A DNA stretch of 45,533 nt from the NCBI GenBank assembly GCA_024400935.1, contig JAKSLZ010000014.1, positions 1 through 45,533 of the forward strand. The letters run 5' to 3'. The position numbers were made by a program, and so were the translations under genes. Source of the stretch: Muribaculaceae bacterium. Lineage in GTDB: Bacteria; Bacteroidota; Bacteroidia; Bacteroidales; Muribaculaceae. A model generated the notes under the pieces. It was not told where the DNA came from, did no database searches, and saw nothing but the letters and a program-made list of their open reading frames with translations. Shown piece by piece: positions 26,654 through 45,484 of the stretch (position 1 is the stretch's first letter; every line of letters starts with the position of its first letter).

Positions 26654-26667
26654 AGCGTTGGGTATAT

Positions 26668-26831
26668 GCAACTATACAACAATGGGAATTATCTCGCGCA
26701 GATTTTTTGCATAATCCCCGCGCGGATCTCACGGATCTCATGGACAAATCATATAATTATTTATTTTTTCAGATTAAATCCGTGAGATCTGCGAAATCTG
26801 CGCGAGACAATCCCCATTGGTGTATAGTTAC
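26668..26831 (+). mobile_element. family A repeat, copy A2
   Basis: A 164-bp element with ends GCAACTATAC (26668-26677) and GTATAGTTAC (26822-26831). The second arm pair ATCTCGCGCAGAT / ATCTGCGCGAGA lies just inside, and an inner dyad GATCTCACGGAT / ATCCGTGAGATC makes the whole unit fold back. No target duplication is seen. It begins 14 nt upstream of the PAP2 start codon. Confidence 0.75.
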
Positions 26832-26850
26832 GAACAGTTACTGGGTGTAT

Positions 26851-27054
26851 GTAACTATACAGCAATAGGACTATCTCGTGCAAATCTCGCTCTAACTGAC
26901 AGAAATTAAAAGAAATTTGAAGAAATTTTTTTACTTCGTATTCTTATTCAGACTAAAAGAACATAAAAGACACGAATTTTAATTTTAATTTCTTTAAATT
27001 TCTGTAAGTTTTAAGCCTGGTTTTGCCCATTGGAACCCATTGGTGTATAGTTAC
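26851..27054 (+). mobile_element. family A repeat, copy A3
   Basis: A 204-bp element with perfect termini GTAACTATAC / GTATAGTTAC and an inner AGAAATTAAAAGAAATT dyad. It is flanked by a 9-bp direct repeat TGGGTGTAT (26842-26850 and 27055-27063), the mark of transposition. By eye it differs from copy A6 (44845-45048) at one position. It lies 19 bp from copy A2. Confidence 0.88.
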
Positions 27055-27222
27055 TGGGTGTATAAATATTTGCAAAAGTACGTTAAATTTTTCATATATG
27101 ACACACTGGCAAGCATTTTATTTTAACACCCACATCTCGACATGCCTGATTATGGGCACTTTAGCTCGTCTTTCACACAATGGCGGCAACTGGGCGACAC
27201 AGGGCAGTTTTTCGCCTCACAA

Positions 27223-27254
27223 ATTGCGTCCCTCACAAAAATTTCGTACCTTTG
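27223..27254 (+). promoter_or_regulatory. probable promoter of the glycosyltransferase gene
   Basis: ATTG (27223-27226), 20 nt, then TACCTTTG (27247-27254) followed by CA. The ATG at 27284 is 29 nt further. This argues for the late start rather than the long frame opening at 27023. Confidence 0.65.
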
Positions 27255-27283
27255 CATTTCCAATTATAACATCTAAGACTACA

Positions 27284-28477
27284 ATGTATTTTTCTATAGA
27301 TATTCCATTTTATATATGGATAATGCTGGGCGTGGCTATGTTGCTGAGCATTATCTACATAGTGTGGCAGTGGAACAGGACCAAGACCCTGACCCGCTTT
27401 ACCCGCGAGACCGAATCGATGCGCGGCTACCTGGAAGAAATGCCCGACGTATCTATCGTTGTTGACGCAATGAACGAGACCGACCAGCTCAACCGCTTCT
27501 TGCCGCTGGTGCTCCACCAGGACTATCCCGGACGAGTTGAGGTGATCGTGGTGGTCGACAGCAATGCCGAGGCCACCAGCGACATGCTCAGCGACATGAA
27601 GGCCCACTTCCCCAACCTGCACACCACATTCGTACCCTACGGCTCACGTTCTCTCTCACGCAAGAAACTAGCCCTGATGATAGGCATCAAGGCTGCACAA
27701 TACGACATCATTCTCACCACCACTGCCGCTTGCCGTCCCACTAACGACCAGTGGCTCAAACTGATGATGCGCAACTTCGTTCCCGGTGTGGACGTGGTGC
27801 TGGGCTACTCGCACTACCGCTACCATCGCGACATGCGCATGGGTCGCCGCATGCGCATCTTTGACACTGTCACCACAGGCGTGCAGTGGCTCACTTGCGC
27901 CATCGCCGGCAAGCCCCACCGTGGCACCAGCGACAACATGGCTTATCGCAAGCAGCTATTCTACAACGTGCGCGGCTTTGCTAACAGCATGGACATGAAG
28001 TGGGGCGAGGACGACGTGTTCCTCAAGGAAATATGCAACCGCACCAACACCCGCGTGGAGATAGCCCCCGAGGCTCAGCTAAACGTCTACTATGAGTCAC
28101 TGCGACGCGCACACTCATTGCTCAAGATGCGCCGCGACTTCACCTCGCGCAAGGTGCGCCGCCTGCCTTTCATCCTGCAGGGCTTCATGAGCTCTATCTA
28201 CTGGCTGCGCTTTGCCTGTCTGGCTGCAGCCGTGGCACTCACCGCAGTGTTCAACCTCAACTCAATAGGCATCGTGGGCATCGCGGCATTCCTCGTCCTG
28301 CTACTCACATGGATCCCCTCGGCATCGCTGTTTGCCACTAACTGCAAGATACTGCAGGCTCCGCCACTGCGCGCCACCGTGCCGTTCTTCATCATGTGGC
28401 GCCCGCTGGTAAACATCTGCTATGCCATCCGCGAGAGCTTCAGCAAGAAGAGCAACCTCACTTCATTCTATGATTAA
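27284..28477 (+). CDS. membrane glycosyltransferase family 2
   Basis: The 397-aa product has an N-terminal membrane segment (YIWIMLGVAMLLSIIYIVW), a cytosolic GT2 domain and two or three C-terminal membrane segments (LRFACLAAAVALTAVF and IGIVGIAAFLVLLLTWI). The catalytic domain shows VSIVVDAMNE, YPGRVEVIVVVDSNAEATSD, SRKKLALMIGIKAA, a TTTAACRPTND stretch and GTSDNMAYRKQLFYNVRGF, with WGEDDVFLKEI as the ED motif. This layout is that of processive or polyprenol-dependent GT2 enzymes. The open frame runs back to 27023 across repeat A3; the ATG at 27284 follows a good promoter and opens the first membrane helix. Its stop overlaps the acyltransferase start. Confidence 0.88.
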   Translation: MYFSIDIPFYIWIMLGVAMLLSIIYIVWQWNRTKTLTRFTRETESMRGYLEEMPDVSIVVDAMNETDQLNRFLPLVLHQDYPGRVEVIVVVDSNAEATSDMLSDMKAHFPNLHTTFVPYGSRSLSRKKLALMIGIKAAQYDIILTTTAACRPTNDQWLKLMMRNFVPGVDVVLGYSHYRYHRDMRMGRRMRIFDTVTTGVQWLTCAIAGKPHRGTSDNMAYRKQLFYNVRGFANSMDMKWGEDDVFLKEICNRTNTRVEIAPEAQLNVYYESLRRAHSLLKMRRDFTSRKVRRLPFILQGFMSSIYWLRFACLAAAVALTAVFNLNSIGIVGIAAFLVLLLTWIPSASLFATNCKILQAPPLRATVPFFIMWRPLVNICYAIRESFSKKSNLTSFYD

Positions 28478-29483
28478 AACCCTGTCGTCGTGGCGCGGAC
28501 TGCTGGTAGTGCTGATAGTGATCTATCACACACCTGTGGCAGCCCTCACCGAGACCGCACACTTGGCGGTGTCGCTGTTCATCGTCATGAGCGGTGCCAT
28601 GCTGGCAATGCGTCACCCTCGGGTGGAATGCACGTGGCGGCAATGGATGTGGCCACGCACGCGACGCATCTACCTGGTGCACTGGCTGGTGCTGGCACTG
28701 CTAGTGCTGTTGCAGTGGCCCATGGGCGACTTCAAGGCCGACTGGACGCTGGCGGCCAATGCCCTGCTCATTCACCCCTACGTGCCCGTGCGCGACACAT
28801 TCCTCTCTTATAATAAACCCACTTGGTTCCTAAGTTCGCTGTTGCTGTGCTATGCCTGCTACCCGGTGCTCAGCACCGCTATGTCACGCCTGCGCTTGCG
28901 CAACAAGTGGATGGTAGCCGCCGCAATGCTCGCACTGCACTGTTGCGTGATGGCCCTGGTGAGTCAATCCACCCGCGACTGGCTGGTCAACATGCCGCTT
29001 ACCCGCCTGGGCGAGTTCATCTGGGGCATGGCATTGGGAGCATCGCTACCCACCATCGAGGAGGGCTGCGGCACATGGATGCGCCGTCATGCCACACTCG
29101 TTGAGATAGCCGTGATGGCTGTGATTGCCGCCATAGTGATAGCTGTGGGCCGCATGCCGTGGCTCGACTGGTGCGAGGACATGGCAGTGTGGTGGATACC
29201 ATCGGCAATGATCATAGCCGTGTGCGTCATTCTCAACGGCAACGAGGGCCTCGTGGGTCGTCTCATGACCACACGCCCCATGACATGGCTGGGCAGCATG
29301 AGCCTCGAAGTTTTCATGCTCTCTGCAGCCGTCACTTACTTCTACAGCCATTACCTCGCCGGCCTCGCCGGCCACTGGGGCCACACCGAGTTCTACGACA
29401 TCAGCTGGCCCCTCACCCTGCCACTCACCCTACTGGCAGCCCCCATCCTCCATTATCTCATTAAAACAATCATAAAGAAATGA
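28470..29483 (+). CDS. acyltransferase 3 family membrane protein
   Basis: The 337-aa protein has about ten hydrophobic helices and the acyltransferase-3 (OafA/PF01757) N-terminal pattern: SSWRGLLVVLIVIYHTPVA with the conserved His of the YH motif, LFIVMSGAML, and R-R-x2-R-IYLVHW. Members move acetyl or other acyl groups onto extracellular sugars. The start ATG at 28470 lies inside the last codons of the glycosyltransferase gene, so the two are translationally coupled. The pair probably makes and then acylates one glycan or glycolipid. The gap from 29484 to 29701 has no ORF and no clear terminator. Confidence 0.88.
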   Translation: MIKTLSSWRGLLVVLIVIYHTPVAALTETAHLAVSLFIVMSGAMLAMRHPRVECTWRQWMWPRTRRIYLVHWLVLALLVLLQWPMGDFKADWTLAANALLIHPYVPVRDTFLSYNKPTWFLSSLLLCYACYPVLSTAMSRLRLRNKWMVAAAMLALHCCVMALVSQSTRDWLVNMPLTRLGEFIWGMALGASLPTIEEGCGTWMRRHATLVEIAVMAVIAAIVIAVGRMPWLDWCEDMAVWWIPSAMIIAVCVILNGNEGLVGRLMTTRPMTWLGSMSLEVFMLSAAVTYFYSHYLAGLAGHWGHTEFYDISWPLTLPLTLLAAPILHYLIKTIIKK

Positions 29484-29701
29484 ACGCAGATTACACGTTT
29501 ACCACACCCCGCACCCGAGCCGCCTCTCAGGAACATCCTCTCTAATCCCGGAAGAAGAAATAACGGCTCTAGAAAAATGGCAAAAAATAATTTGTTTTTC
29601 AAAAAAGAGAAAGAAAATATATTGCATATTACATAATTTTTCAGCAACTTTGCAAAACGCAAATTCACATATATTAATTTTTATAACTCACATTAACTAT
29701 T

Positions 29702-30586
29702 ATGAAAAGACTTTGTATCATCCTCACGATTGCCCTCCTGTACAGCGCAAGCAGCGCAACCGCACAGCGTCGCAACTCATCATCACGCAAAGCAACCACA
29801 ACAACCACAACCTCGGCAAAACTTCCCAAAGACGCCGATCTGGTGCGCCGCGCCCAAGCCGAAGAACCTCGCGCAATGGCCAAGATGGCCGAATGTTATC
29901 TCGAGGGAAGCAACGGTGTCAAGAGAGACGAAAGAGAAGGCTTCGAATGGGCTCAGAAAGCAGCCGAACAAGACGACGGTGTGGGACTGTACCTCTTGGC
30001 ACTGTGCTACTACAGCGGATTTGGAGTTGACGAAGATTACAACAGCGCTTACAACCTGTTCGGTGAAGCTGTATACACACTGATGCGCGAAGCCCAAACC
30101 GGCGATGTCACGGCGCAATACTACCTTGCATGTTGCTACGACTACGGTTTTGGCACACAGCCCGATAGTTATGAAGCTGCCAAGTGGTACAAGCTCGCGG
30201 CCGAGCAAGGTGACGCTTTTGCACAATGCAACCTTGGCATATGCTATGAAGAAGGCAATGGCGTGAGACAAGACTACGCCGAGGCCGTGAAGTGGTACAA
30301 GCTTGCGGCACAGCAAGGCGACTCTGCCGCACAACGCAAACTGGGTTATTGCTATGACCAAGGATATGGCGTGAACCCAAACATCAATGAGGCCGTCAAG
30401 TGGTACAAACTCGCCGCAGAGCAAGGCGATGCCCGTGCACAATGCTTGCTCGGATGGTGCTATGAAAAAGGACGCGGCGTGGCCCAAAACAAAAACACAG
30501 CCATCAGCTGGTACAAGAAGTCGGCGGCACAAGGCGACGAAACAGCCCAGCAAAACTTAAGAAACCACGGCATCTACAAATGGTGA
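29702..30586 (+). CDS. secreted Sel1-like repeat protein
   Basis: The 294-aa product has a signal peptide (MKRLCIILTIALLYSASSATA) and a Ser/Thr-rich spacer (about 24-42). It is followed by about six Sel1-like repeats of 36 residues, with pattern AxxWYKLAAEQGDxxAQxxLGxCYExGxGV. The last three repeats are near-perfect; the first is degenerate, and one near the middle has an expanded loop (EAVYTLMREAQTG). Sel1 repeats form a right-handed alpha solenoid used for protein-protein contact, here in the periplasm or at the surface. The partner is unknown. It is a single gene with a strong downstream stem-loop. Confidence 0.93.
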   Translation: MKRLCIILTIALLYSASSATAQRRNSSSRKATTTTTTSAKLPKDADLVRRAQAEEPRAMAKMAECYLEGSNGVKRDEREGFEWAQKAAEQDDGVGLYLLALCYYSGFGVDEDYNSAYNLFGEAVYTLMREAQTGDVTAQYYLACCYDYGFGTQPDSYEAAKWYKLAAEQGDAFAQCNLGICYEEGNGVRQDYAEAVKWYKLAAQQGDSAAQRKLGYCYDQGYGVNPNINEAVKWYKLAAEQGDARAQCLLGWCYEKGRGVAQNKNTAISWYKKSAAQGDETAQQNLRNHGIYKW

Positions 30587-30608
30587 TATACTGAAATCAC
30601 CACCACGC

Positions 30609-30663
30609 AACTATTCCCGCACAAAGGCAAGCAATACACATCTGCTTTTGTGCGGGAATAGTT
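30609..30663. terminator. 21-bp stem-loop between convergent genes
   Basis: The left arm 30609-30629 pairs with 30643-30663 (21 bp, one G-U) around a 13-nt loop. It lies 22 nt after the Sel1-repeat gene stop and faces the convergent gene ending at 30825. No T-run follows, so it may be an RNA-stabilising hairpin more than an intrinsic terminator. Confidence 0.7.
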
Positions 30664-30824
30664 ATATATATCTATGCAGTGCCTCCTCACACTAAAGCCA
30701 ATATCCTCTAGCCGTTAACCCCATCACATCACGAACCACATAAAAAAAGGATGAACCATGCGGCCCACCCTTCTCTATATCAGATGCCTGCAACAGCCCA
30801 AAGCCATGCAGTGTTAAATGTCAT

Positions 30825-31325
30825 TTAAAAATACACGATTACTCTTGTCTCTTTCTCCTTGCCGTCAGTCCTTAAAATCCAGTTACCGTGGCTATCATAC
30901 TCTAAATACCTATAAGAGTGGCGCATAAAATTTTCATCAAAGTACCCTGTTCGCTTTCCGTTACCGTCATAGGTGTATCTATACATATTTTCTTCTCCCT
31001 GACAAGAAAAATGTTCACTTACAACCTGCATGTCATTCCAAGACCATACGGTATGGTCGTTAAATGTACTTGTGATACGCCCTTTACCATCTCTTACATA
31101 GTACTCTCTAGCGTCCTGACCAGCGAATGACAAAAGTCGGCCGTTCCTGTTAAAAACATAATCAAAATTCCAACTATCATTAGATGTCTCACAGTAAACC
31201 GTCACTTTCTTCACTTTTCCCAGGAGATCACAAAATGCATAGTCATAAGTCAGATAATTAGTTGCCTGGCCGAAGGCAAATACTGCCGACAGCAGGAAAA
31301 CGAAAGATATAATACTCTTCTTCAT
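30825..31325 (-). CDS. secreted YD-repeat-like protein
   Basis: The 166-aa product has a signal peptide (MKKSIISFVFLLSAVFAFG) and a beta-rich mature part of short Y/D/N/G-rich strands: FDYVFNRNGRLLSFAG, YYVRDGKGRITSTF, YRYTYDGNGKRTGYFDE and YLEYDSHGNWILRTDG. These resemble RHS/YD-type repeats, which curl into a shell in toxins, but four units are too few for that. Similar small proteins are common in Bacteroidetes and of unknown function. The longest frame extends upstream to 31430; the ATG at 31325 begins the signal peptide and lies 33 nt after a good -7 box. It is AT-richer than most of the window. Confidence 0.8.
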   Translation of the reverse strand: MKKSIISFVFLLSAVFAFGQATNYLTYDYAFCDLLGKVKKVTVYCETSNDSWNFDYVFNRNGRLLSFAGQDAREYYVRDGKGRITSTFNDHTVWSWNDMQVVSEHFSCQGEENMYRYTYDGNGKRTGYFDENFMRHSYRYLEYDSHGNWILRTDGKEKETRVIVYF

Positions 31326-31357
31326 TGTTGATATTATTTTATTATGGTTACCAAGTA

Positions 31358-31388
31358 CAAAGGTACACAAATTTCCACTAACAACAAC
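31358..31388 (-). promoter_or_regulatory. promoter of the YD-repeat-like gene
   Basis: On the minus strand GTTG (31388-31385), 19 nt, then TACCTTTG (31365-31358). The -7 box is a full match and the -33 box matches 3 of 4. Confidence 0.6.
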
Positions 31389-31456
31389 CTTCACGCCAAG
31401 AAAAATGAGTTTCCCCGCACTTCCTCGCACTCTATTGAAGAAACACTATTGAAGAA

Positions 31457-31631
31457 GTAACTATTCAGCAATGGTAATATCTCGCGCAGAACTCGCGAAA
31501 TAACTGGAAGAAATTTATCAAAATCAGAAGAAATTATTTCACCACCTAATATTATGCAAATACATTATCCCGCTTTTATCTGCGTTGTCTGCGAGTTCTG
31601 CGCGAGATTATCCCCATTGGTGTATAGTTAC
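31457..31631 (+). mobile_element. family A repeat, copy A4
   Basis: A 175-bp element with ends GTAACTATTC and CATTGGTGTATAGTTAC, and the same TATCTCGCGCAGA / TCTGCGCGAGA inner arms as copy A2. It is flanked by an 8-bp direct repeat TTGAAGAA (31449-31456 and 31632-31639). It lies in a 579-nt gap (31326-31904) between divergent genes with no other gene in it. Confidence 0.8.
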
Positions 31632-31833
31632 TTGAAGAAAGAAACCCTTCATCAGCTTTACACCACCCCACGCCTCCCTAAAAAACGGAAAAAGTGGGAT
31701 TTTTACCCCAATTTTGACAGAAAAAGTGGAGAATACATGGCAATGACGTGATTTTGCCACCGCTCGACATTCCACATATATAGGTAAACGGGGTTAAACA
31801 AAAACTTGTCGACGACAAACAGATGGATAAAAA

Positions 31834-31865
31834 TTTGGTAGAAATCAATAAGTTTTATACCTTTG
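31834..31865 (+). promoter_or_regulatory. consensus promoter of the DUF234-type ATPase
   Basis: TTTG (31834-31837), exactly 20 nt, TACCTTTG (31858-31865), a full match to the Bacteroidetes consensus, 39 nt before the ATG. Confidence 0.8.
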
Positions 31866-31904
31866 CATGAAATTTAATTTTTTGTAATTTACAAATTTGT
31901 AAAA

Positions 31905-33215
31905 ATGAAATTCTACGACAGAGAAATCGAAATGCGAGAGCTACAGCGGCTAGATGACCTTGCTTCGAAGGTTGCCCAATTCACTGTGCTCATGGGTCGC
32001 CGTCGAACAGGCAAGACAACCCTCATGATTAAGGCAATGGAGGGACGCAGGTTCGTATATTTCTTTATCGGAAAGAAGGCCGAAGCCCTACAATGCCGAG
32101 ACTTCCAGAAAACTGCCGAGGAGGTGTTGGGCATACACATTCATGGCCAAATCACCACGTTCAGTTCTTTACTAGAGGAATTGATGATTTACAGCAAAAC
32201 ACAGAAAACAACTGTAATAATTGACGAATTTCAACGACTTGCCGAGATTGACGAAAGCATCATAGGCAGTATCCAGAAAGTGTGGGATGCACACCATGCC
32301 GATGCAAAGATGCATCTAATTGCGTGCGGTAGCATTTATTCGATGATGAAGAAGATATTTGAAGACCGCAAGGAGCCCCTCTTCGGCCGAAAAACCGCAC
32401 GCATTGACTTGAAACCCTTTTCCACTCAAGTGTTAAAGCAGATTATCCAAGACCACAATCCCTATTTTGTCCCAGATGATTTGCTGATGCTTTATGCAAT
32501 CACAGGCGGTGTGGCAAAATATGTGGCACAGTTGATGGACGAAGGATGCAAAACTGCTGGCGACATGATTAATGCAGTGTGTCGTCCGTCAAGCATTTTT
32601 ATGGATGAAGGCACAGAACTGCTGGTAGGAGAGTTTGGACGCAAGTATCAAGTTTATTACAGCATCCTGCAGCTTATTGCCAGCGGCAAGACGAGTCAAC
32701 CCGAAATAGATAGCATTATTGAAAAAAATACCGGGCGATACATTGACACGCTAGAACGAGAATATTCGCTCATCCAGAAACGTCGTCCCATGTGGGCAAA
32801 ACCTGCTAGCCAAGGAGTCAAATTTTATATCAACGATTGTTTCCTTATGTTCTGGTTTCGCTTCATTGAGAGCAACAGGGCAATGGTGGAGCTAGGCAAG
32901 TATGACTTGCTGCGCGACATCATCTTGGAGGAATATCCTCAATATAGCGGCATGATTCTTGAAAAGTATTTTAGACAGAAATATGGGGAACAAGAGCGTG
33001 TTACCGAAGTGTCGCACTGGTGGGATAGCCTGGGAGACAACGAGATAGACCTGATTGCTATTCAAAAACTCGACCGACGTGCCACGGTTGCCGAAGTGAA
33101 ACGCAATCCGCACAAGTACAATCCGCATTCATTAGAAAAGAAGTTTGAATGCATCAAAAAACATTTGCAAGGATACGAGGTATCATTGATAGGATTATCT
33201 CTCAAGGACATGTAA
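31905..33215 (+). CDS. AAA ATPase with C-terminal DUF234 nuclease-like domain
   Basis: The 436-aa protein fits the archaeal-ATPase/DUF234 group common in Bacteroidales. The N-terminal half has MKFYDREIEM, Walker A GRRRTGKTT (31-39), Walker B VIIDEFQ (about 104-110) and a sensor-like LIACGSIYSMM. A winged-helix-like middle follows (ITGGVAKYVAQL, then YYSILQLIASGKTSQPEI). The C-terminal part carries a PD-(D/E)XK-like core, NEIDLIAIQKLDRRATVAEVKRN, with the D and ExK residues in place. These proteins have been tied to mobile elements and toxin-like systems, but no biological role is established. It is a single gene with a consensus promoter. Its GC looks lower than that of the T9SS genes that follow, consistent with transfer. 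Confidence 0.9.
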   Translation: MKFYDREIEMRELQRLDDLASKVAQFTVLMGRRRTGKTTLMIKAMEGRRFVYFFIGKKAEALQCRDFQKTAEEVLGIHIHGQITTFSSLLEELMIYSKTQKTTVIIDEFQRLAEIDESIIGSIQKVWDAHHADAKMHLIACGSIYSMMKKIFEDRKEPLFGRKTARIDLKPFSTQVLKQIIQDHNPYFVPDDLLMLYAITGGVAKYVAQLMDEGCKTAGDMINAVCRPSSIFMDEGTELLVGEFGRKYQVYYSILQLIASGKTSQPEIDSIIEKNTGRYIDTLEREYSLIQKRRPMWAKPASQGVKFYINDCFLMFWFRFIESNRAMVELGKYDLLRDIILEEYPQYSGMILEKYFRQKYGEQERVTEVSHWWDSLGDNEIDLIAIQKLDRRATVAEVKRNPHKYNPHSLEKKFECIKKHLQGYEVSLIGLSLKDM

Positions 33216-33257
33216 TTCACAATTAAGTGGAAAAATAATACGGTTGCCCACCTACAG

Positions 33258-33265
33258 TAACTTTG
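33258..33265 (+). promoter_or_regulatory. -7 element before the truncated gene
   Basis: TAACTTTG followed by CA, 78 nt before the truncated ATG at 33344. The -33 box is weak. Confidence 0.4.
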
Positions 33266-33343
33266 CAAACAACAAACATCTACACATCACATACATATTA
33301 ATTAATATAATCCACTTCAACATATAGAACCCACACTACTGTA

Positions 33344-33385
33344 ATGAAAAAACTCACCACCATACTCGCGGCTGCCCTATCATGA
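33344..33385 (+). pseudogene. truncated secreted-protein gene (signal peptide only)
   Basis: ATG at 33344 opens MKKLTTILAAALS and then a stop. The sequence is a plausible start of an exported protein (two Lys, then a hydrophobic core), cut off before a cleavage site. With a -7 box upstream, the simplest reading is a decayed secreted-protein gene. No downstream homologous body can be recognised. Confidence 0.45.
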
Positions 33386-33655
33386 CAGCCTTACCCTGAC
33401 ACGCACACCCAACCTGGTAAACACACACCCGGAAAACCCGGAACTCCCGGGAAATCCGGAACCTATGGGGATAGTTAAAACCAATGGGGAGGACCGCTCT
33501 GGGAATGCTGGGGCCCCCGGGGGATGCAGGGCTTTCTTCCCGCGGAAAATCATCCTTCAAAAATGGATGGCAGGAATGCTTTACCTGGGGGTGTGGATGA
33601 AAAAAATGAGGGTTTGTGGCAATAAGTTGATAAAAAATGCGTTATTATCTTTACA

Positions 33656-34399
33656 ATGGCACGTTTTTTTAGACACATCTTATGCTTGACAATGCTGGTG
33701 CTCACTGCGCTGGCTACTGTGGCTCAGGACAATGACAAGATCCTCAACCGCCAGTATGCCGACATGAAGCGGGTGCACTTTGGGTTCTCCATAGGACTTA
33801 ATTTCCAGGACCTTAACATCACCAACAATGGTTTTACAAGCGAGGACGGCGAGCAGTGGTGGAGCGACATTCCCCAGCACTCGCCGGGATTTTGCGTCAA
33901 CGTGCTGGCCGACTACCGTCTGGGCAAGCACTTCAACCTGCGCTGCGCCCCGGGCATGTACTTTGGCAACAAGGTGGTGCAATTCCGCAACTCGATGGCT
34001 AACCCCGAGCTGGACGACATCACCCACCAGCGCCAGAGCCAGAATATCAAGTCGACCTATCTGGTACTGCCCGTCGACCTGAAGATCTCGTCGCTGCGCT
34101 ACCACAACCTGCGCCCCTATGTGACCACCGGCGTGATGCCCGTGTGGGACCTGAGCAAGAACCACAGCGAGCAGTTCCAGCTCAAGAAGACCGACGTGAT
34201 GCTGAGCGTGGGCATGGGCTGCGACTTCTACCTGCCTTTCTTCAAGTTCTGCCCCGAGGTGAAGTTTTGCTTCGGCCTCAAGAACGTGCTCAACAAGAAC
34301 CGCGACGACCTCAAGGACAACCCTGAGCTGATGAGGTTCACCCAGAGCGTGGACAAGATGCAAAACAACATGGTGGTGGTGACATTTAACTTTGAATAA
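33656..34399 (+). CDS. porT: PorT-family outer membrane protein, T9SS
   Basis: The 247-aa product has a signal peptide (MARFFRHILCLTMLVLTALATVA) and an outer-membrane beta-barrel pattern of the PorT/OMP_b-brl_2 type: MKRVHFGFSIGLNFQDLNI, GFCVNVLADYRLGKHFNLRCAPGMYFG, STYLVLPVDLKISS, LRPYVTTGVMPVWDL, and a final VVVTFNFE strand ending near an aromatic residue. PorT is required for type IX secretion in Porphyromonas gingivalis, though its precise task is unsettled. A -7-like box (TATCTTTA, 33646-33653) ends only 2 nt before the ATG. The next gene starts 9 nt after its stop, so it appears to lead the operon porT-porP-gldK-L-M-N. Confidence 0.88.
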   Translation: MARFFRHILCLTMLVLTALATVAQDNDKILNRQYADMKRVHFGFSIGLNFQDLNITNNGFTSEDGEQWWSDIPQHSPGFCVNVLADYRLGKHFNLRCAPGMYFGNKVVQFRNSMANPELDDITHQRQSQNIKSTYLVLPVDLKISSLRYHNLRPYVTTGVMPVWDLSKNHSEQFQLKKTDVMLSVGMGCDFYLPFFKFCPEVKFCFGLKNVLNKNRDDLKDNPELMRFTQSVDKMQNNMVVVTFNFE

Positions 34400-34408
34400 C
34401 TCTAGACA

Positions 34409-35398: not shown

Positions 35399-35401
35399 TA
35401 T

Positions 35402-36832: not shown

Positions 36833-36860
36833 CCCTCCTGCGCACCGCCCGGTTGCCACA

Positions 36861-36886
36861 GTGTGCCTCCCCCCGTGACGGCACAC
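36861..36886 (+). other. intercistronic hairpin between gldK and gldL
   Basis: GTGTGCC (36861-36867) pairs with GGCACAC (36880-36886) around a 12-nt C-rich loop. It has no T-run. It could mark an mRNA processing or partial attenuation site in the 114-nt gap, the longest in this operon. Confidence 0.4.
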
Positions 36887-36946
36887 ACCACACAATAATA
36901 TTAACAAGACTACTCTACAGCAATACATATAATAGAGATTAGCAAG

Positions 36947-37906: not shown

Positions 37907-37960
37907 GCACGTGACTCGATAACTGACACATCAACCACTTCATATATATAGTTAATATAA

Positions 37961-39577
37961 ATGGCAAATGGTAGAAACCAATCGGTGAACAAGATGTCGC
38001 CTCGCCAGAAGATGATAAACCTCATGTATATCGTCCTCACAGCGATGCTAGCGCTCAATGTGTCCAGCGACGTGCTCAACGGATTCAGCCAGGTTGCCGA
38101 CAGCCTCGAGCGCTCTAACCGCATCATCACGGCGCGCAACCAGGGCCTCTATCTTGCCTTGCAGCAGTTCAACGAGAAGAACCCCGTCAACGGCAAGAAG
38201 TTCCTGGCACAGGCTACCGACCTGAGAGCCAAGAGCGACATGCTCTACAGCTACATCGACTCACTGAAATTTGAAATCGTCAAGGAAGCCGACGGTGAAA
38301 ACGCCGACGTCCACAACATCATAAACCGCGACGACCTCGAGGCCGCCGCACACGTGATGCTCACTCCGGGTACCGGCCGCGGGCCCGAACTGAGAGCCAA
38401 GATTGACGCCTTCCGCACTTATGTCACAGGACTCATCAACGACAAGTACATGAAGGACAACATCGCTCAGGCACTCTCTACCGACAACCGCAACACTAAG
38501 GGCGGCGAGAACGGCGAGGAACTGAGCAACAAGAAATGGGAAGAGGCAATGTTTGAGAACATGCCCACCATCGCGGCTGTGACAATGCTCTCTAAACTGC
38601 AAAATGACATACGCTATGCCGAGGGACAGGTGCTCAACCACATGCTCAGCGAGGGCGACGAGCCCGCACATCCCGAGCCCGTGATCGAGAACATCACACC
38701 CGCACCGCCCGTGCCCCTGCAGGGCGACTCGTTTGAGGCATTCGTGTGCCCGCAGTCAAGCATCGTCATGAAGGGATCGCGCTACTCGGCCGACATCGTC
38801 ATGGCGGCTATCGACGAGAGCCATCGCCCCGTGGTGGTTGTCAACGGACAACGCATCACTAACGGCCACTATGAGGTGGGCGCAAGCACTCCCGGCACTC
38901 ACAACTACTCAGGATATGTGACCGTGACCGACCGCAACGGCAAGACCTATAAGCGTGAATTCCAGTCGAGCTACACTGTAGTTGAACCCATGGCAACCAT
39001 CCAGGCCACCATGATGAACGTGTTCTATGCCGGCATCGACAACCCCGTGAGCATAGGCGTGGGCGGTGTTCCCGGTTCAAACATCTCAGCCACAATGACT
39101 AACGGCACGCTCACCAAGAGCGGTAACGGCTGGGTGGCACGTTGCTCTAAGGTGGGTGCCGAGTGTGAAATCTCAGTATCGGCCGAGGTCAACGGCAAGC
39201 GCATCAGCGTGGGCTCTACCAAGTTCCGCGTGCGCAAGCTGCCCGATCCACTCCCCTACCTCAGCGTGGGCGACAACCGCTTCAAGGGCGGACGCATCGC
39301 TAAGGCATCGCTCATGGGTGCCAGCGGCGTGGGAGCAGCCATCGACGACGGCATCCTCGACATCAAGTATCACGTCGTGAGCTTCGAGACCGTCTTCTTC
39401 GACTCAATGGGCAACGCTATGCCCGAGGTTTCTAGCGGCGGCGGTTTCAGCGAGCGTCAGCGTGCAGCCATCAAGAACCTCAAGCACGGCAAGCGCTTCT
39501 ACATCTCTCGCATCAAGGCATCAGGCCCCGACGGCATCACCCGCGACCTGCCGCCACTCGAGATTATCGTGAACTAA
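37961..39577 (+). CDS. gldM: T9SS motor protein GldM/PorM
   Basis: The 538-aa protein has one N-terminal membrane helix (MINLMYIVLTAMLALNVS, about 18-35) and a long periplasmic part of four domains that reaches the GldK/N ring. Family landmarks include the N-terminal SPRQKMINLMY, the helical DSLERSNRIITARNQGLY, PGTHNYSGYV in the middle, PVSIGVGGVPGSNISATMTNG, and the C-terminal ISRIKASGPDGITRDLPPLEIIVN. A dimer is driven by the GldL pentamer and transmits torque or conformational energy across the periplasm. It starts 54 nt after gldL. Length matches the family. Confidence 0.95.
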   Translation: MANGRNQSVNKMSPRQKMINLMYIVLTAMLALNVSSDVLNGFSQVADSLERSNRIITARNQGLYLALQQFNEKNPVNGKKFLAQATDLRAKSDMLYSYIDSLKFEIVKEADGENADVHNIINRDDLEAAAHVMLTPGTGRGPELRAKIDAFRTYVTGLINDKYMKDNIAQALSTDNRNTKGGENGEELSNKKWEEAMFENMPTIAAVTMLSKLQNDIRYAEGQVLNHMLSEGDEPAHPEPVIENITPAPPVPLQGDSFEAFVCPQSSIVMKGSRYSADIVMAAIDESHRPVVVVNGQRITNGHYEVGASTPGTHNYSGYVTVTDRNGKTYKREFQSSYTVVEPMATIQATMMNVFYAGIDNPVSIGVGGVPGSNISATMTNGTLTKSGNGWVARCSKVGAECEISVSAEVNGKRISVGSTKFRVRKLPDPLPYLSVGDNRFKGGRIAKASLMGASGVGAAIDDGILDIKYHVVSFETVFFDSMGNAMPEVSSGGGFSERQRAAIKNLKHGKRFYISRIKASGPDGITRDLPPLEIIVN

Positions 39578-39604
39578 AGCAAACTCTACACTTAACTCAA
39601 GAAT

Positions 39605-40765
39605 ATGAAGACTATCAAACTGATATTAGCACTGATGATTGCAGTGGGCATCGCTTCCTCAGCCAGCGCACAGGTGGTGAAGAAGACCGAGGCCGACCGC
39701 AAGAACGAAGAGAAGTCGGCAACCGGCATCACTTCACGCCAGCAGGCATTCTATGAAGTGACCGAGCCCAGCGACGCTGACCTGCAGTGGATGAAGGTGC
39801 TCTACCGCAAGCTTGACCTCACTAAGGGCAAGAACCAGGCACTGTACTATCCCGAAGACCCCAACGAAGACGGCATGAGCCTCTTCTTCATCATCATGCG
39901 ACTGCTTGCCGACGACAAGATTTGCGCCTATGAGTTCCTCGATGGCCGCGAGATGTTTACCGACGAGTACAAGATCAAGGTGAGCGAGATGCTCGACCGC
40001 TTCCACATCATGTCACAACCCGCCAAGGGCAGCACTGAGAAGAGCCCCAAGTTTGACATTGAGGACGCCGACATCCCCGGCAACGAGATCCTGAGCTACT
40101 ACATCATTGAGCGCTGGGAGTTTGACACACGTTCTAACCGCATGCGCACACGCGTCGAGGCACTGTGCCCCGTGCTGCACCGCATGGACGAGTTTGGCGG
40201 CGAAGCCATCCCCTACCCCATGTTCTGGGTCAAGCTCAACGACATACGCCCCTACATAGCTAACCAGTTTATCTTCACCGACGACGACAACAACCTGGCA
40301 CGCTACAGCCTGGACGACTTCTTCAAGCTCAACATGTACACCGGCGAGATCTACAAGACCAAGAACATGCGCAACCTGTCGCTGCGTCAGCAGTTCCCCG
40401 ACGACGATGCCTACAAGCACGCACAAGACAGCATTGAGCAGCGTCTGCGCGCCTTCAACAAGGAGCTGTGGGTTCCCACCCGCGAAGAGCTCAAGGCTCG
40501 CGCTGAGGCTAAAGAAAACGACAAGGCTCAGCTTTATGACGACGAGGACGGTGACGGCGACAAGAGCAAAGACAGCAAGAAAGATGACAAGAAGGACGAC
40601 AAGAGCGTGAAGCGCAGCACTAAGCGCGGCAATCAGTCGGCCGACAAACCCAAAGAGAAAAAGTCAGAGAAGAAACCCACTGAATCAAAGGTTAAGGAGC
40701 GCAAGCCCAAGAGCGCACCCTCAGCTTCGAGCGGAGCAGCACGTAGCGTGCGCAACCGCAAGTAA
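39605..40765 (+). CDS. gldN: T9SS ring protein GldN/PorN with Lys-rich tail
   Basis: The 386-aa product has a signal peptide (MKTIKLILALMIAVGIASSASA) and the GldN core, which builds the periplasmic ring with GldK: VLYRKLDLTKGKNQALYYPE, NLFFI-like GMSLFFIIMRLL, ILSYYIIERWEFDTRSNRMRTRVEALCPV, YPMFWVKLNDIRPYI, and DDFFKLNMYTGEIYKTKNMRNLSLRQQ. After about residue 305 comes an unusually long Lys/Asp/Ser-rich disordered tail (KSKDSKKDDKKDDK, then KPKEKKSEKKP). The tail is not part of the ring fold and probably varies between species. It ends the operon, and a terminator follows. Confidence 0.93.
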   Translation: MKTIKLILALMIAVGIASSASAQVVKKTEADRKNEEKSATGITSRQQAFYEVTEPSDADLQWMKVLYRKLDLTKGKNQALYYPEDPNEDGMSLFFIIMRLLADDKICAYEFLDGREMFTDEYKIKVSEMLDRFHIMSQPAKGSTEKSPKFDIEDADIPGNEILSYYIIERWEFDTRSNRMRTRVEALCPVLHRMDEFGGEAIPYPMFWVKLNDIRPYIANQFIFTDDDNNLARYSLDDFFKLNMYTGEIYKTKNMRNLSLRQQFPDDDAYKHAQDSIEQRLRAFNKELWVPTREELKARAEAKENDKAQLYDDEDGDGDKSKDSKKDDKKDDKSVKRSTKRGNQSADKPKEKKSEKKPTESKVKERKPKSAPSASSGAARSVRNRK

Positions 40766-40794
40766 AAGACTTATCCGGGTCACCACAACAACAC

Positions 40795-40835
40795 AGATCC
40801 CTGCCGACCACCACATCGGCAGGGATCTTGATTTT
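40795..40835 (+). terminator. intrinsic terminator of the T9SS operon
   Basis: A perfect 13-bp stem (40795-40807 with 40816-40828) closes an 8-nt loop and is followed by TGATTTT, 29 nt after the gldN stop. Confidence 0.85.
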
Positions 40836-41092
40836 GTAATATTGCTGTCCGGGGAATTTCAATCATTAGAAAACGTTATTCAAAGAACACGATTCAAATT
40901 GCAGTAAAAGAAGCGCTGAAGGCGCGTGCTGTGAGCGGTAGGGCTTCGCCCCTTTGTTTTATCCCCGTACGTTCTCCAGTCGCTTCGCTCCTTGCGCACG
41001 TACGGTGTTATTAGCCAAACTCCAGTTTGGCGTAGCGTACCTTGCGGCACGCTTTTGAAAATACTTTTGTATATACTCCCGATGCATGCAAA
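40836..41092. other. gene-free gap with small hairpins
   Basis: No ORF is supported. It contains GCCAAACT-CC-AGTTTGGC (41014-41031), a near-perfect palindrome, and CGTACG motifs at about 40966 and 40999 flanking CTCCAGTCGCTTCGCTCC. These look like degraded intergenic repeats. Confidence 0.5.
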
Positions 41093-41240
41093 GAGGGTGT
41101 CTCAAAAAGCATAGAGCAACGTTTTGCCCGGTCACGGGCAGCGGGTAGGGACGACACCCCCGTGTCGTCCGTAGCGACCGCAGGGCGCTGCAACACAGCA
41201 GCTTGCCTCAGGGGGGGGCACACACGATCAGAGCATACGG
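41093..41240 (+). repeat. family C GC-rich hairpin repeat, copy C1
   Basis: Starts GAGGGTGTCTCAAAA and holds GGACGACAC/GTGTCGTCC around a CCCC loop (41149-41170). Its core (about 41110-41215) aligns with the reverse complement of 22950-23075 inside repeat A5. It abuts repeat B2, whose left end (GGTGTGTCAAAA) resembles its own start. Confidence 0.7.
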
Positions 41241-41243
41241 GAG

Positions 41244-41392
41244 GGTGTGTCAAAATGCGCTTTGGTAGGGTAACAATGCTTTTGCCCTTGCAGGGCGCAT
41301 TGCCATTACCGTCTGTTTCCCTGGGCGTTGCCCTGGGCTAGTTACAACATTGCGCTTACAGCGCGCCGCTTTTTCATATGTTTTGACACAGC
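41244..41392 (-). mobile_element. family B MITE-like repeat, copy B2
   Basis: A 149-bp copy of B1 in the opposite orientation, differing by eye at about four positions. It has a GGTGTGTCAAAA left end and a slightly changed right end (TTTTGACACAGCC). It ends 20 nt past the carbohydrate-binding lipoprotein gene's stop and may serve as its terminator. Confidence 0.8.
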
Positions 41393-41412
41393 CCCCTTTC
41401 AACTTAATTATT

Positions 41413-43392
41413 TCAAGCTACCGAGTCGTTGCCGGTATGGGCTTTCTTGGGCGAGGTCTGATGATGGGTTGACTTAGATGCTGCCGAGGGTTTTGAAGCC
41501 GCGGCACGAGTTGAACGGGTTGCCGACGAGTCGGTCGACCTCATAGTGCGGGCAGCAACGGTCGAATCAGTTGCCGTTGCAGCAGCCGATGCAGTTGTGG
41601 CGCCAGCACCAGGAGTCATGATGTTGACCATGTTGAGTTTCTTGGCAAATGTGCACTTGCCAGCTACCGACTTGTTAACTGCCGAGCCGTTCAGCATGAG
41701 TCCGTGGAAGGTGTGGGTGGGCTGACTCACATTAGCTGTTGTGCAGATGTCATAAGTAGCATCATCGGCAAACTGAGGCAGGCTGACGAGCACCTTATAG
41801 CCATTCACAAAATTCTGGAACTCAGGCAGCTTGAAAGCAAGGGCATTTTCCTGTGTACCTGACGCAGTCAATGCAAACTCCTTGTCAGAGAGGGGTCTGT
41901 GTACGATGCATGCAGGGTGCTCTAGCAGCGCTGCAGTGGGAGGCGATGTAATGTTGCCCACACCCACCAGTGTAACGTCAGGAGCAATGCGGAACTCATT
42001 GAAGTCACAGTCAAATCCGCGGCCGCCTCTATACTTTGACACGGCAAACAGCACACCGCCGTTAATGTGGATGGTACCGTTAGAGTCAATGGCATCCATC
42101 ATGGTTTCAGAGTACAAGCAACCGCTGTTGAACTCAAAGTCGGCCACACCGGGCTCACCCACGCTCACAGCGTCATCATGGGCAAGCAGCTCTATCAGAC
42201 TGTTGTTGATGATAATCTTGCGACGGCTCTCGAGTGCTTCGTTCCTGCCGTTAGTACAGCGAATGCGCACACGCGCACTGTCTATGCGCACCTCATCCAT
42301 ACCCTTGACGCCCTTGTTCTTGCTACCAGTAGACCTGTCGTCGTTGCCAAATGTGAGCACATCGACCATGGCGTTCTTGATATACAGCTTGTGAGAAGCA
42401 CGCATACCCTTGCCACCCAGCGACATCTCCTTGATGCGCACGATACCTCCGGTGATGTTGATGATACTGTCGCACTTGATGCCCTTGGCGTTCTTGTTGC
42501 CCTTGGCTCCCGGTGTGTCGCTGATGATGATGGTGCGACCACCGGCAATCTCGACAATGCTGTCGGCCACAAGACCGGCTGCACCGCGTCCCTTAGAACT
42601 GATGTTGATCATACCGCCCTCAATGCGTATATTGTGCTGCGCCTGGATAGCGTCGCCATATCGTGAATCGATGTCGAGCTTGGTACCGCGGCGCACAAAG
42701 ATGCTCTTGTCAGAGTGAACGGCATCGGCTCCCATGGCAACAACCTTGAGCGGAGCAGTACCGCCAAAGGCCAGCTTGCCTTCGCTGAAGATACACCCCT
42801 TTTGCTGCAGCGTGTCGTTGACCACGGTATAGAGGGTATCGTCGCTCAGCTGCGATGCGGCATTAGTGATGACATAGCACTCTTTCTTAGACTGGCAGTT
42901 AAGCGCCGGACCCTTGGGATTCTTGAGCTTAACACCGTCGAGAGTCATGCACACCTTCTTGTCACCCATGACCATGAGCGAGCCGTTGTCTGACTGGCCC
43001 GAAAGCACGCAGTTGACCTTCTTCATTGCTGTCACAGTGACGTGGGCACCGTCAGTCTTGATCTTGAAGTCTGACTGGTTCTTGCTCTCAACAGTGGCAG
43101 TGTTTCCTTCAAATTTAATGTTTATCACATCCTCAAACGGAGTGTTCTCCACATAGGCGTTCTTCTCGCTGTTGTGGTAAATCTTTTCCTTAAACTCTGT
43201 GTAGTCGGGGGTAATGTCAAATGTCTTGAAATCAGCCGTTCCCAGCTCTACGCTGTCAGTGTTGAATGTCCATACGGGTGGTTCGGGTTCATTGTCTTCC
43301 TCGGCAACTGCCTTCTTCTTGTCATCACTGCATGCGGCCAGGCATGCAATAATTGCAAGTGTCGCGATAACATAATTAGGTCTACTAATCAT
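41413..43392 (-). CDS. carbohydrate-binding (Cthe_2159-like) beta-helix lipoprotein
   Basis: The 659-aa lipoprotein (lipobox LAAC, Cys21) matches the carbohydrate-binding domain family PF14262 (Cthe_2159): FNTDSVELG..., INIKFEGNTATV, then ladders of short beta turns such as GPALNCQSKKECYVITN, VHSDKSIFVRRGTKLDI, KGIKCDSIINITGGIVRI and HDDAVSVGEPG. This is a right-handed beta-helix thought to bind pectin or cellulose-like polymers. The C-terminal ~80 residues are Ala/Ser/Thr-rich and basic (STHHQTSPKKAHTGNDSVA at the end), probably disordered. It lies 38 nt downstream of the tyrosine phosphatase gene, so the two are probably co-transcribed. No enzyme motif is seen. Confidence 0.85.
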   Translation of the reverse strand: MISRPNYVIATLAIIACLAACSDDKKKAVAEEDNEPEPPVWTFNTDSVELGTADFKTFDITPDYTEFKEKIYHNSEKNAYVENTPFEDVINIKFEGNTATVESKNQSDFKIKTDGAHVTVTAMKKVNCVLSGQSDNGSLMVMGDKKVCMTLDGVKLKNPKGPALNCQSKKECYVITNAASQLSDDTLYTVVNDTLQQKGCIFSEGKLAFGGTAPLKVVAMGADAVHSDKSIFVRRGTKLDIDSRYGDAIQAQHNIRIEGGMINISSKGRGAAGLVADSIVEIAGGRTIIISDTPGAKGNKNAKGIKCDSIINITGGIVRIKEMSLGGKGMRASHKLYIKNAMVDVLTFGNDDRSTGSKNKGVKGMDEVRIDSARVRIRCTNGRNEALESRRKIIINNSLIELLAHDDAVSVGEPGVADFEFNSGCLYSETMMDAIDSNGTIHINGGVLFAVSKYRGGRGFDCDFNEFRIAPDVTLVGVGNITSPPTAALLEHPACIVHRPLSDKEFALTASGTQENALAFKLPEFQNFVNGYKVLVSLPQFADDATYDICTTANVSQPTHTFHGLMLNGSAVNKSVAGKCTFAKKLNMVNIMTPGAGATTASAAATATDSTVAARTMRSTDSSATRSTRAAASKPSAASKSTHHQTSPKKAHTGNDSVA

Positions 43393-43430
43393 CAGGTTAT
43401 TATTGCATCTAGTATATTAATATAAGTTTT

Positions 43431-44717
43431 TTATTCGTCACTATCATTATTTTCTCGATGAGCAGCCTCGATGAGTTCGTGCTCGGGCTCAAGGCCCAAC
43501 ATGGCGCAGCGTATCCCATCAAGTTCCTCCTCTGACACGCCCAACTCCAGGCAGTAGTTGTAGAAGCACTGCGTGAGGCTGTCGCCCGACTTGCCATAGG
43601 AACGGATGACCGGCAGCATACTAGCATAGTTCCCGGCGCGGATGGTATTGCCATAAGCAAATGACGACAGCTCATACTCACGGCTCAGGTCGGCCTCGCT
43701 GAGACCTATCAGTCCGCCGATGACAAACGCAAGCGTGCCGGCGCGGTTTACGCCATGGTTACAGTGCAAGAACACCGCTTTGCCCTCCTGCATCACCCGT
43801 GAGATGAACTTGAGGTCGTCGCGCAATGCCGCCTTAGAACTTGGTTGCGTCAGCCCCGTTTTGTAACGGGCATTGTTAGTGGTATGGATTTCCACCTCAT
43901 TAGCTGGCCCCATGGCCGAGCGGTCGCGCACGGTTCCAGTGAGCTCCAGGTCGGCCTTGATGCGCTCGTTCTTCACAAAGTCGTTCCTGCCGGTCTCTGT
44001 AATGCCACGAGGATGGTTGCCGCGAAAGATGCGACCATAATTGGTCTTGACGCCGAACGATGTGTTCCAGCCACCAAAGTCGCGCACGTTGGACATGCCG
44101 CCCACGCGCATCATGCGCACCTGACCTGTAGTGATGAAATGGCCATATGTCACGACATTGCGCGTGCCATCCTTGAGTACCTCTTCCACTTTATAGTAGT
44201 AATGACTGTCAGGAAGCATGTTGCATATCGTGTAACTGGTGCTGTTGTCGGCAGGATAATAAGTATTTACATCTCCCTCAAAGTTCTCTGACATGCTCAG
44301 CGTCACCACCAGGTCGGCCAACTCACCCTCTGCCGCACGGCGCTGCCACGAGACACTCTTGCCACGAGGAGTGGAGCCTATACCCTTTGAATACTTTTGA
44401 ACGACAGTTAGCGAATATCTGTCAGTATTTCCCGGCTGGTCATAAGTGCGATCGGCCATAAACGCCTTAACACCGTCATTCTCAATATTGACAGTCTCAC
44501 AACTCAGGTTTGTAAAATCCAGAACAGGAACAGTCGAAGCACTTGTTGCTGATGGTTCCCGAGTTTTTTTATTTTTATCAGAGGGATGTGGAACCAGACG
44601 GTTATTAGTAGTGGGTCTCCCTGCAGGTCTGGGTATAACCCTAGTGTCGTGCTGCTGTGCAACCGACGACAAGAAAATACAGAATATAGAGAGTAAAAAA
44701 GCTAATCGTTTAGTCAT
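43431..44717 (-). CDS. secreted tyrosine-type phosphatase with an Ig/FnIII-like domain
   Basis: The 428-aa product has a signal peptide (MTKRLAFLLSIFCIFLSSVA) and a basic Pro/Ser-rich spacer (about 25-60). A beta-sandwich domain of about 100 residues follows (SYTICNMLPDSHYYYKVEEV resembles the end of a FnIII fold). The C-terminal phosphatase domain fits PF13350: RVGGMSNVRDFGGW (204-217), FRGNHPRGITETG, then the active-site loop HCNHGVNRAG with Cys319-x5-Arg325 intact. The open frame extends to 44750, but the ATG at 44717 starts the signal peptide. An exported tyrosine phosphatase could act on host or surface proteins or on phosphosugars; the substrate is unknown. It leads a two-gene operon and has a consensus promoter. 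Confidence 0.88.
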   Translation of the reverse strand: MTKRLAFLLSIFCIFLSSVAQQHDTRVIPRPAGRPTTNNRLVPHPSDKNKKTREPSATSASTVPVLDFTNLSCETVNIENDGVKAFMADRTYDQPGNTDRYSLTVVQKYSKGIGSTPRGKSVSWQRRAAEGELADLVVTLSMSENFEGDVNTYYPADNSTSYTICNMLPDSHYYYKVEEVLKDGTRNVVTYGHFITTGQVRMMRVGGMSNVRDFGGWNTSFGVKTNYGRIFRGNHPRGITETGRNDFVKNERIKADLELTGTVRDRSAMGPANEVEIHTTNNARYKTGLTQPSSKAALRDDLKFISRVMQEGKAVFLHCNHGVNRAGTLAFVIGGLIGLSEADLSREYELSSFAYGNTIRAGNYASMLPVIRSYGKSGDSLTQCFYNYCLELGVSEEELDGIRCAMLGLEPEHELIEAAHRENNDSDE

Positions 44718-44766
44718 GAAAATGTGAATTTCGTGAAAAAAATTCTCCAACTTACAGTTGATTATG

Positions 44767-44797
44767 CAAAGTTACTACTTTTATCCCAACCCACAAA
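44767..44797 (-). promoter_or_regulatory. consensus promoter of the phosphatase operon
   Basis: On the minus strand TTTG (44797-44794), 19 nt, TAACTTTG (44774-44767), followed by CA, 49 nt before the ATG. Full match to the Bacteroidetes consensus. Confidence 0.8.
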
Positions 44798-44844
44798 GCA
44801 AAGCGCTTGTTTTTAAGAAATTTATACACAGTTTGATACCCGTT

Positions 44845-45048
44845 GTAACTATACTGCAATAGGACTATCTCGTGCAAATCTCGCTCTAACTGACAGAAAT
44901 TAAAAGAAATTTGAAGAAATTTTTTTACTTCGTATTCTTATTCAGACTAAAAGAACATAAAAGACACGAATTTTAATTTTAATTTCTTTAAATTTCTGTA
45001 AGTTTTAAGCCTGGTTTTGCCCATTGGAACCCATTGGTGTATAGTTAC
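44845..45048 (+). mobile_element. family A repeat, copy A6
   Basis: A 204-bp copy, differing by eye at one position from A3 (26851-27054). It is flanked by a 9-bp direct repeat ATACCCGTT (44836-44844 and 45049-45057). The differing target duplications of A3 and A6 mark independent insertions. The rest of the 44798-45269 gap holds no clear gene. Confidence 0.88.
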
Positions 45049-45269
45049 ATACCCGTTATAACGGTTTGTTTCGACACCCCATTTACCGAGAAAAAAAAAG
45101 GCTTCATTAAACCCTGTCACGATTTTTGTGTCACATACACATAAATTCACATTTTCCACTTTTAATACTTACAGTTATGAAACAGAAATAATTACCCCCA
45201 TAGTTGCCGGCAAGGCAATTATCGAGAGAAACAGCCCCCCTAGCGTATCACCCATAAAATCAATGAGTC

Positions 45270-45473: not shown

Positions 45474-45484
45474 TAGTACAATCG

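What the first reader, a model, noticed from the sequence alone, without database searches (positions are those of the whole stretch)
26851..45048. Near-identical 204-bp non-autonomous transposons with target duplications (family A, copies A3 and A6)
Copies at 26851-27054 and 44845-45048 have the same length, differ by my reading at one of 204 positions, and share GTAACTATAC/GTATAGTTAC termini. Each is flanked by its own 9-bp direct repeat (TGGGTGTAT and ATACCCGTT). Different duplications and near-identical bodies imply two recent independent insertions of a MITE-like element mobilised in trans.
Basis: seen in the sequence. Interest (0 to 1): 0.75.

Follow-up and report, generated by a model that had tools for sequence, protein, structure and literature searches.

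The report
Mobile DNA hairpins that insert side-by-side
A gut bacterium's genome carries many nearly identical 204-letter pieces of mobile, gene-free DNA that jumped recently, and more than half of them landed exactly beside the end of another piece of the same kind, which suggests that the unseen enzyme that moves them picks its own kin as landing sites.

Summary
Confirmed: the copies at 26851-27054 and 44845-45048 differ at 1 of 204 bases and each has its own exact 9-bp duplication. The genome, a 77%-complete MAG, holds at least 17 full-length copies at 97-100% identity: ten with exact 9-bp duplications, four 8-bp, one 9-bp with a mismatch, two without. These are recent insertions of a MITE, a transposon lacking its own transposase gene. 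It belongs to a set of short elements with shared ends (144 termini against 7 for the control pattern). No autonomous partner was found.

New: 11 of 17 copies, including the one at 26851, lie exactly 8-9 bp from the terminus of another element of the set (9 of 17 under a strict match, with three strict matches at all other gaps from 0 to 99 bp). The 26851 copy shares its 9-mer with an older element at 26668-26841; the 44845 copy has no such neighbour.

Best reading: an unidentified transposase making 8-9-bp staggered cuts prefers the edge of resident sister ends as target. The MITE is ordinary in kind; the self-adjacent targeting is the interesting part.

The parts
26851..27054 (+). 204-bp MITE, family A, copy A3
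   Evidence: Identical to six other copies in the genome; long hairpin, z -5.7 and -7.3 on the two strands
26842..26850 (.). target duplication TGGGTGTAT, left; also the right flank of the older element at 26668-26841
27055..27063 (.). target duplication TGGGTGTAT, right
26668..26841 (.). older GTAAC-ended element (174 bp, right end doubled) that abuts A3
   Evidence: flanked by TGGGTATAT/TGGGTGTAT, 1 mismatch
26659..26667 (.). diverged third copy of the duplication, TGGGTATAT
44845..45048 (+). 204-bp MITE, family A, copy A6
   Evidence: 1 of 204 differences from A3
44836..44844 (.). target duplication ATACCCGTT, left
45049..45057 (.). target duplication ATACCCGTT, right
4740..4950 (-). diverged relative of family A (about 84% identical), 8-bp duplication CTTTTATC
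31457..31631 (+). 175-bp GTAAC-ended element of another subfamily, 8-bp duplication TTGAAGAA
22770..23146 (+). 377-bp GTAAC-ended element with internal palindromes; no duplication found

Best explanation
Family A is a 204-bp MITE: a non-autonomous DNA transposon with about 10-18 bp of conserved terminal inverted repeat and an imperfect palindrome inside. A transposase that recognises GTAACTATWCASCAATGG-type ends (consensus drawn by eye) moves it in trans and joins it to target strands cut 9 bp (sometimes 8) apart. Its preferred target is the outer edge of a resident element with the same kind of end: one of the two joining points falls at, or within one base of, the resident's end/flank junction and the other 8-9 bp outside, giving end - 8/9 bp - end arrays. 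Shown: bodies, duplications, copy number, exact spacing, position between genes. Inferred: the transposase, its binding to resident ends during target choice, and the cut-and-paste or copy-in chemistry.
For: At least 17 full-length copies. Against one reference copy 7 of 17 are identical (the reference included), 6 have one difference, 3 two, 1 six. Duplications: 10 of 17 exact 9 bp, 4 exact 8 bp, 1 nine bp with one mismatch, 2 none. No copy of 17 is spanned by an ORF of 120 codons or more as it stands. Sister termini: 144 against 7 for the reversed pattern. Adjacent sister end at 8-9 bp: 9 of 17 copies at <=2 mismatches in 11 bases (three matches at all other gaps 0-99: 19, 69, 81), 10 of 17 at <=3 (eight elsewhere), 11 of 17 at <=4 (62 spread over the other 98 gaps, at most four at any one). 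In 321,688 bases fetched around termini, outward-facing neighbouring ends within 400 bp had gaps 8, 9 (seven times), 19 and 93; all but the 93 involve family A. At 19 the neighbour has a doubled end whose outermost half is 9 bp away. The far side of the neighbour carries a diverged third copy of the duplication in two clear cases. Two elements as one 598-bp unit carry an outer duplication TGGTTTACG, so outer ends alone seem to suffice.
Against: No transposase gene bounded by these ends was found. 6 of 17 copies, among them the window's 44845 copy, have no sister terminus at 8-9 bp. Two of the 11 neighbours match the terminus weakly (L001 at 3, L006 at 4 of 11 mismatches). Beyond the two clear cases no convincing third copy of the duplication was found on the neighbour's far side (in one case the neighbour is cut by the contig end). 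The end-to-end spacing was seen only with family A: other elements of G000 gave one outward-facing pair, at 93 bp, and the loci held from G004 and G031 gave none. The genome is a fragmented MAG, so some junctions could be assembly errors, although 15 of 17 copies with matching duplications are hard to get that way.
Confidence: 0.8

Rival explanations
1. An ordinary MITE with no preference for sister ends: the adjacency reflects insertion into intergenic safe havens already full of repeats.
For: The copies lie between genes and the genome is rich in sister elements; six of 17 copies have no neighbour at 8-9 bp.
Against: Clustering would give spread gaps, not 8-9 bp exactly; the strict gap count is 9 at 8-9 bp and 3 elsewhere from 0 to 99. 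By my arithmetic 144 termini in 2.84 Mb give about 1e-4 per random insertion.
Confidence: 0.1
2. The pairs are composites: A plus its neighbour move together as one unit from a donor site.
For: One clear case, C140:374-971, has an outer duplication TGGTTTACG and a different inner spacer GCTGCATTG.
Against: In the other ten cases the spacer between A and its neighbour matches the flank on A's other side over 8-9 bp (exact in nine, one mismatch in L015), as expected if A itself inserted there; the neighbours are of several sequences.
Confidence: 0.07
3. Not transposons but structured RNA or regulatory hairpin repeats spread by recombination or gene conversion.
For: Strong hairpins on both strands; position between genes.
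Against: 8-9-bp duplications that differ from copy to copy mark transposase-made insertions; no Rfam family matched the elements in the window at the gathering score.
Confidence: 0.03

Closest known systems
MITEs of Porphyromonas gingivalis (BrickBuilt, 464/PgRS; PMC4596501, passages seen)
   Same: Also Bacteroidales (recalled); short, intergenic, multi-copy, inverted-repeat ended, no transposase gene, with internal repeats.
   Different: BrickBuilt ends are said to resemble those of ISPg1/ISPg9 and ISPg4 and the elements hold 23-bp tandem repeats; the end letters shown for BrickBuilt differ from GTAACTATAC; no end-to-end insertion was mentioned in the passages seen.
IS66 family (recalled: ends begin GTAA, 8-bp duplication)
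   Same: Ends begin GTAA and some duplications are 8 bp.
   Different: Most duplications here are 9 bp, and no IS66 transposase domain was found in G000, G004 or G031.
IS256 family (recalled: 8-9-bp duplications)
   Same: A mix of 8- and 9-bp duplications.
   Different: No Transposase_mut domain in the three genomes.
IS30-type end-targeted insertion, and plant MITEs nested at their own duplications (both recalled, not tested)
   Same: Insertion beside the ends of resident kin.
   Different: Here an 8-9-bp duplication spaces the ends, in a bacterial MITE.
Casposons (PMC6977970 and PMC4046053, seen in search listings only; details recalled)
   Same: Repeated insertion at one target that duplicates it each time.
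   Different: Longer duplications and a fixed site beside host genes (recalled); no Cas1 was sought here.

Membership tests
MITE | short (under about 600 bp) and too short to code for a transposase | tested here: met
   204 bp, at most 68 codons
MITE | terminal inverted repeats | tested here: met
   GTAACTATAC/GTATAGTTAC
MITE | target duplication of constant length class, different at each site | tested here: met
   14 of 17 exact at 8 or 9 bp, 1 with one mismatch, 2 without
MITE | multiple near-identical copies | tested here: met
   at least 17 copies at 97-100%
MITE | autonomous partner with the same ends | tested here: inconclusive
   none among the termini fetched; not all termini were listed or fetched (one search lists 100 of 144) and the genome is 77% complete in 140 contigs
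IS66-derived MITE | IS66 transposase (PF03050) in the host | tested here: not met
   0 of 3 incomplete genomes; the control search rang in 4 of 14
IS66-derived MITE | 8-bp duplication | tested here: not met
   10 of 17 are 9 bp, 4 of 17 are 8 bp
IS256-derived MITE | Transposase_mut (PF00872) in the host | tested here: not met
   0 of 3 incomplete genomes; the control search rang in 6 of 14
IS4/IS5/ISAs1-type (PF01609) | transposase gene bounded by GTAACTATAC ends | tested here: inconclusive
   two partial genes in G000 at contig edges; no bounding ends in the DNA held. The hits in G004 and G061 (G031 gave none) were not examined for ends

The most novel reading that the evidence does not exclude
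The transposase behind these elements uses the ends of resident sister elements as its main target: it recognises a resident terminus, joins at its edge and 8-9 bp outside, and so builds arrays in which each new copy duplicates the same 8-9-bp spacer. This would be a self-addressing mode of MITE spread that keeps insertions out of genes.
Probability: 0.6. Interest if true: 0.6.

Novelty: new variant of a known kind. Interest (0 to 1): 0.45.

Why it matters
MITEs are common in bacteria, but how they choose targets and avoid genes is poorly known. Copies that pile up one duplication away from their own kin give a simple rule: resident ends are the landing pads. That would limit damage to the host, could build composite units that move together (one is seen here), and would make target choice by a bacterial transposase directly testable. 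It also warns that duplications read in isolation can hide a shared older site.

Tried and rejected
Autonomous element: looked for paired ends with a target duplication enclosing a gene around the termini fetched in G000 (none longer than 598 bp), read the starts of 134 ORFs from the stretches, and the longest ORFs of 16 earlier loci, by eye (none looked like a fitting transposase; one looked IS110-like), and searched PF01609, PF03050 and PF00872. The 20 stretches were not read for ORFs, and one search listed only 100 of its 144 termini. IS1, IS1595, ISL3, ISLre2 and IS982 families were not searched with models. Six contig-edge termini (C21, C59, C63, C66, C85, C97) belong to a second element family of about 376 bp, not to a gene-bearing IS; the edges of C62 and C65 did not match it at E 1e-20 and remain unassigned.

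Elsewhere: the 18-base end pattern gave six hits in genome contigs, two of them in Candidatus Sodaliphilus records and the other four looking like chance (records near the window's genome may be left out there); none in viral contigs. Plasmid and phage searches gave only weak partial matches. The 10-base end searched as text was in 13 papers; none of the 10 listed is on transposons by title. Papers on MITEs in Bacteroidetes and on end-adjacent insertion were sought without a direct precedent in the listings; this is a limited library and limited wording.

Orthologous sites: the 44845 flank gave no match spanning the site in the genus; for 26851 only gene-pair conservation could be shown. Hairpin covariation: an alignment of six relatives was made but not scored. 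First comparison of G031 with the fimicaballi record failed, probably because the stretch ran past the DNA held; a shorter stretch matched.

Full report
Observation. The window is a whole contig (C46) of a 2.84-Mb MAG in 140 contigs, 77% complete. DNA from two relatives matches public records: G031 shares a stretch with a Candidatus Sodaliphilus fimicaballi contig and G004 with a Candidatus Sodaliphilus limicaballi contig. The host, of the same genus in the tool's scheme, is by inference a Sodaliphilus species (Muribaculaceae, Bacteroidales; lineage).

Copy number and age. A DNA search of the genome gave 74 matches (40 of 120 first-look candidates scored), of which 17 are full-length at 97-100%. 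Against one reference copy, 7 of 17 are identical (including the reference), 6 have one difference, 3 two and 1 six. Of the 17, 10 have exact 9-bp and 4 exact 8-bp duplications, one a 9-bp duplication with one mismatch, and two none. One of the two without (C140) is part of a 598-bp pair whose outer flanks carry an exact 9-bp duplication. No ORF of 120 codons or more spans any of the 17 copies as they stand; one neighbouring ORF runs 18 bases into a copy (L011). With the copy removed in a script, stop-to-stop frames of 90 codons or more spanned five of 17 sites; they were short or spanned the site near the frame's upstream edge, and none is clearly a broken gene. This is a recent burst of transposition into DNA between genes.

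The wider set. Termini of the type TGNTGWATAGTTAC with up to one mismatch occur 144 times in the genome, against 7 for the reversed control. Where both ends and a duplication with at most one mismatch could be paired, elements run from 53 to 376 bp, besides three longer spans that join two neighbours. In the genus, 3 of 101 genomes hold an exact 14-base end; in a sample of the family, 3 of 397 hold the 18-base end with up to one mismatch. The same three genomes are concerned: G000, G004 and G031. In one search (61 genomes, up to 13 candidates scored in each) the full body was matched only in G000; G004, G031 and G046 gave partial matches, nearly all to the inner palindrome and one, in G031, to the first 40 bases.

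Anatomy. Family A folds as one long imperfect hairpin on either strand: -51.7 and -58.1 kcal/mol, z -5.7 and -7.3 against 200 shuffles. A second family of about 376 bp (for example C90:13728-14103, duplication CCGCTATAA) carries nested hairpin modules, -175.4 kcal/mol, z -12.5 against 100 shuffles. Pieces of it lie at six of the contig edges fetched.

Insertion beside sister ends. Lining up the flanks of the 17 copies showed that many abut another element. I then counted outward-facing ends at every gap from 0 to 99 bp on both sides of each copy. At two or fewer mismatches in 11 bases there were 9 matches at 8-9 bp (eight at 9, one at 8) and three at all other gaps (19, 69, 81); at three or fewer, 10 at 8-9 bp and eight elsewhere; at four or fewer, 11 at 8-9 bp and 62 spread over the other 98 gaps, at most four at any one. 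The gap of 19 is the window copy itself: its neighbour at 26668-26841 has a doubled right end, the outer half of which lies 9 bp from A3. A scan of the 321,688 bases fetched around termini gave outward-facing end pairs within 400 bp at gaps 8, 9 (seven), 19 and 93; all but the 93 involve family A, and the loci held from G004 and G031 gave no such pair. By my arithmetic, 144 termini in 2.84 Mb give a random insertion about a 1 in 10,000 chance of falling at such a place.

What the pattern says. In ten of the 11 cases the spacer between A and the neighbour matches the flank on A's other side (nine exactly over 8-9 bp, L015 with one mismatch), so A itself inserted there. In L001 and in the window copy a diverged third copy of the duplication lies beyond the neighbour; in the others none was convincing. 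In L003 and L006 the gap is 9 while A's own duplication is 8, so the duplication starts one base short of the neighbour's end. The simplest mechanism is a transposase that treats a resident terminus as a preferred target and joins at or next to its edge and 8-9 bp outside. The eleventh case, C140, looks like two elements that moved as one unit. Six of 17 copies, the window's 44845 copy included, have no sister end at 8-9 bp.

Neighbouring genes. Around the 26851 copy lie a PAP2-domain gene and a glycosyltransferase gene. Both have relatives side by side in G063, with no such element seen by eye in the stretch printed (which holds a run of N on the PAP2 side), and in G004, with what looks like a different palindromic repeat in the gap.

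The mover. No gene-bearing element with these ends was found. PF03050 and PF00872 gave 0 of 3 genomes. PF01609 gave two partial genes in G000 without these ends in the DNA held, and one hit each in G004 and G061, whose ends were not examined. Not every terminus was fetched, the MAG is incomplete, and multi-copy IS are often lost in binning (general knowledge), so absence is not proof.

Verdict. The element is a new MITE family, ordinary in kind. The exact self-adjacent spacing is unusual; within the searches made (listings or passages only) I saw no description of it for bacterial MITEs.

Noticed in passing
L146 (G000:C140) 374-971: Two different GTAAC elements 9 bp apart share one outer 9-bp duplication TGGTTTACG, so the pair probably moved as a 598-bp composite.
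   Followed up: partly
L186 (G000:C90:13728-14103) and contig edges C21, C59, C63, C66, C85, C97: A second MITE family of about 376 bp built of nested hairpin modules (fold z -12.5); pieces of it lie at six contig edges.
   Followed up: partly
L002 and L011, right flank of the A copy: Two A copies without a sister terminus at 8-9 bp sit one duplication away from TGA(C/A)AGAAATTAAAAT, like the start of the inner palindrome of the set, perhaps a second kind of landing site.
   Followed up: no
window 26821-26841; L027 start: Doubled terminal repeats (two end-like motifs in a row) on single elements.
   Followed up: no
window 22770-23146: 377-bp GTAAC-ended element with a GGGACGACACCCCCGTGTCGTCC-type palindrome inside; no target duplication found.
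   Followed up: no
window 45479-45533: The last bases of the contig match several places in G061, G089, G004 and G003 at 91-100%, a dispersed repeat of another kind.
   Followed up: no
L204 (G004:C73), gap before the glycosyltransferase gene: The gap orthologous to the 26851 site seems to hold a different palindromic repeat.
   Followed up: partly
L148 (G000:C35) 191-509: Two tandem copies of the family A inner palindrome.
   Followed up: no
L136 (G000:C76), contig end: An ORF that by eye looks like an IS110-type transposase, cut by the contig end.
   Followed up: no
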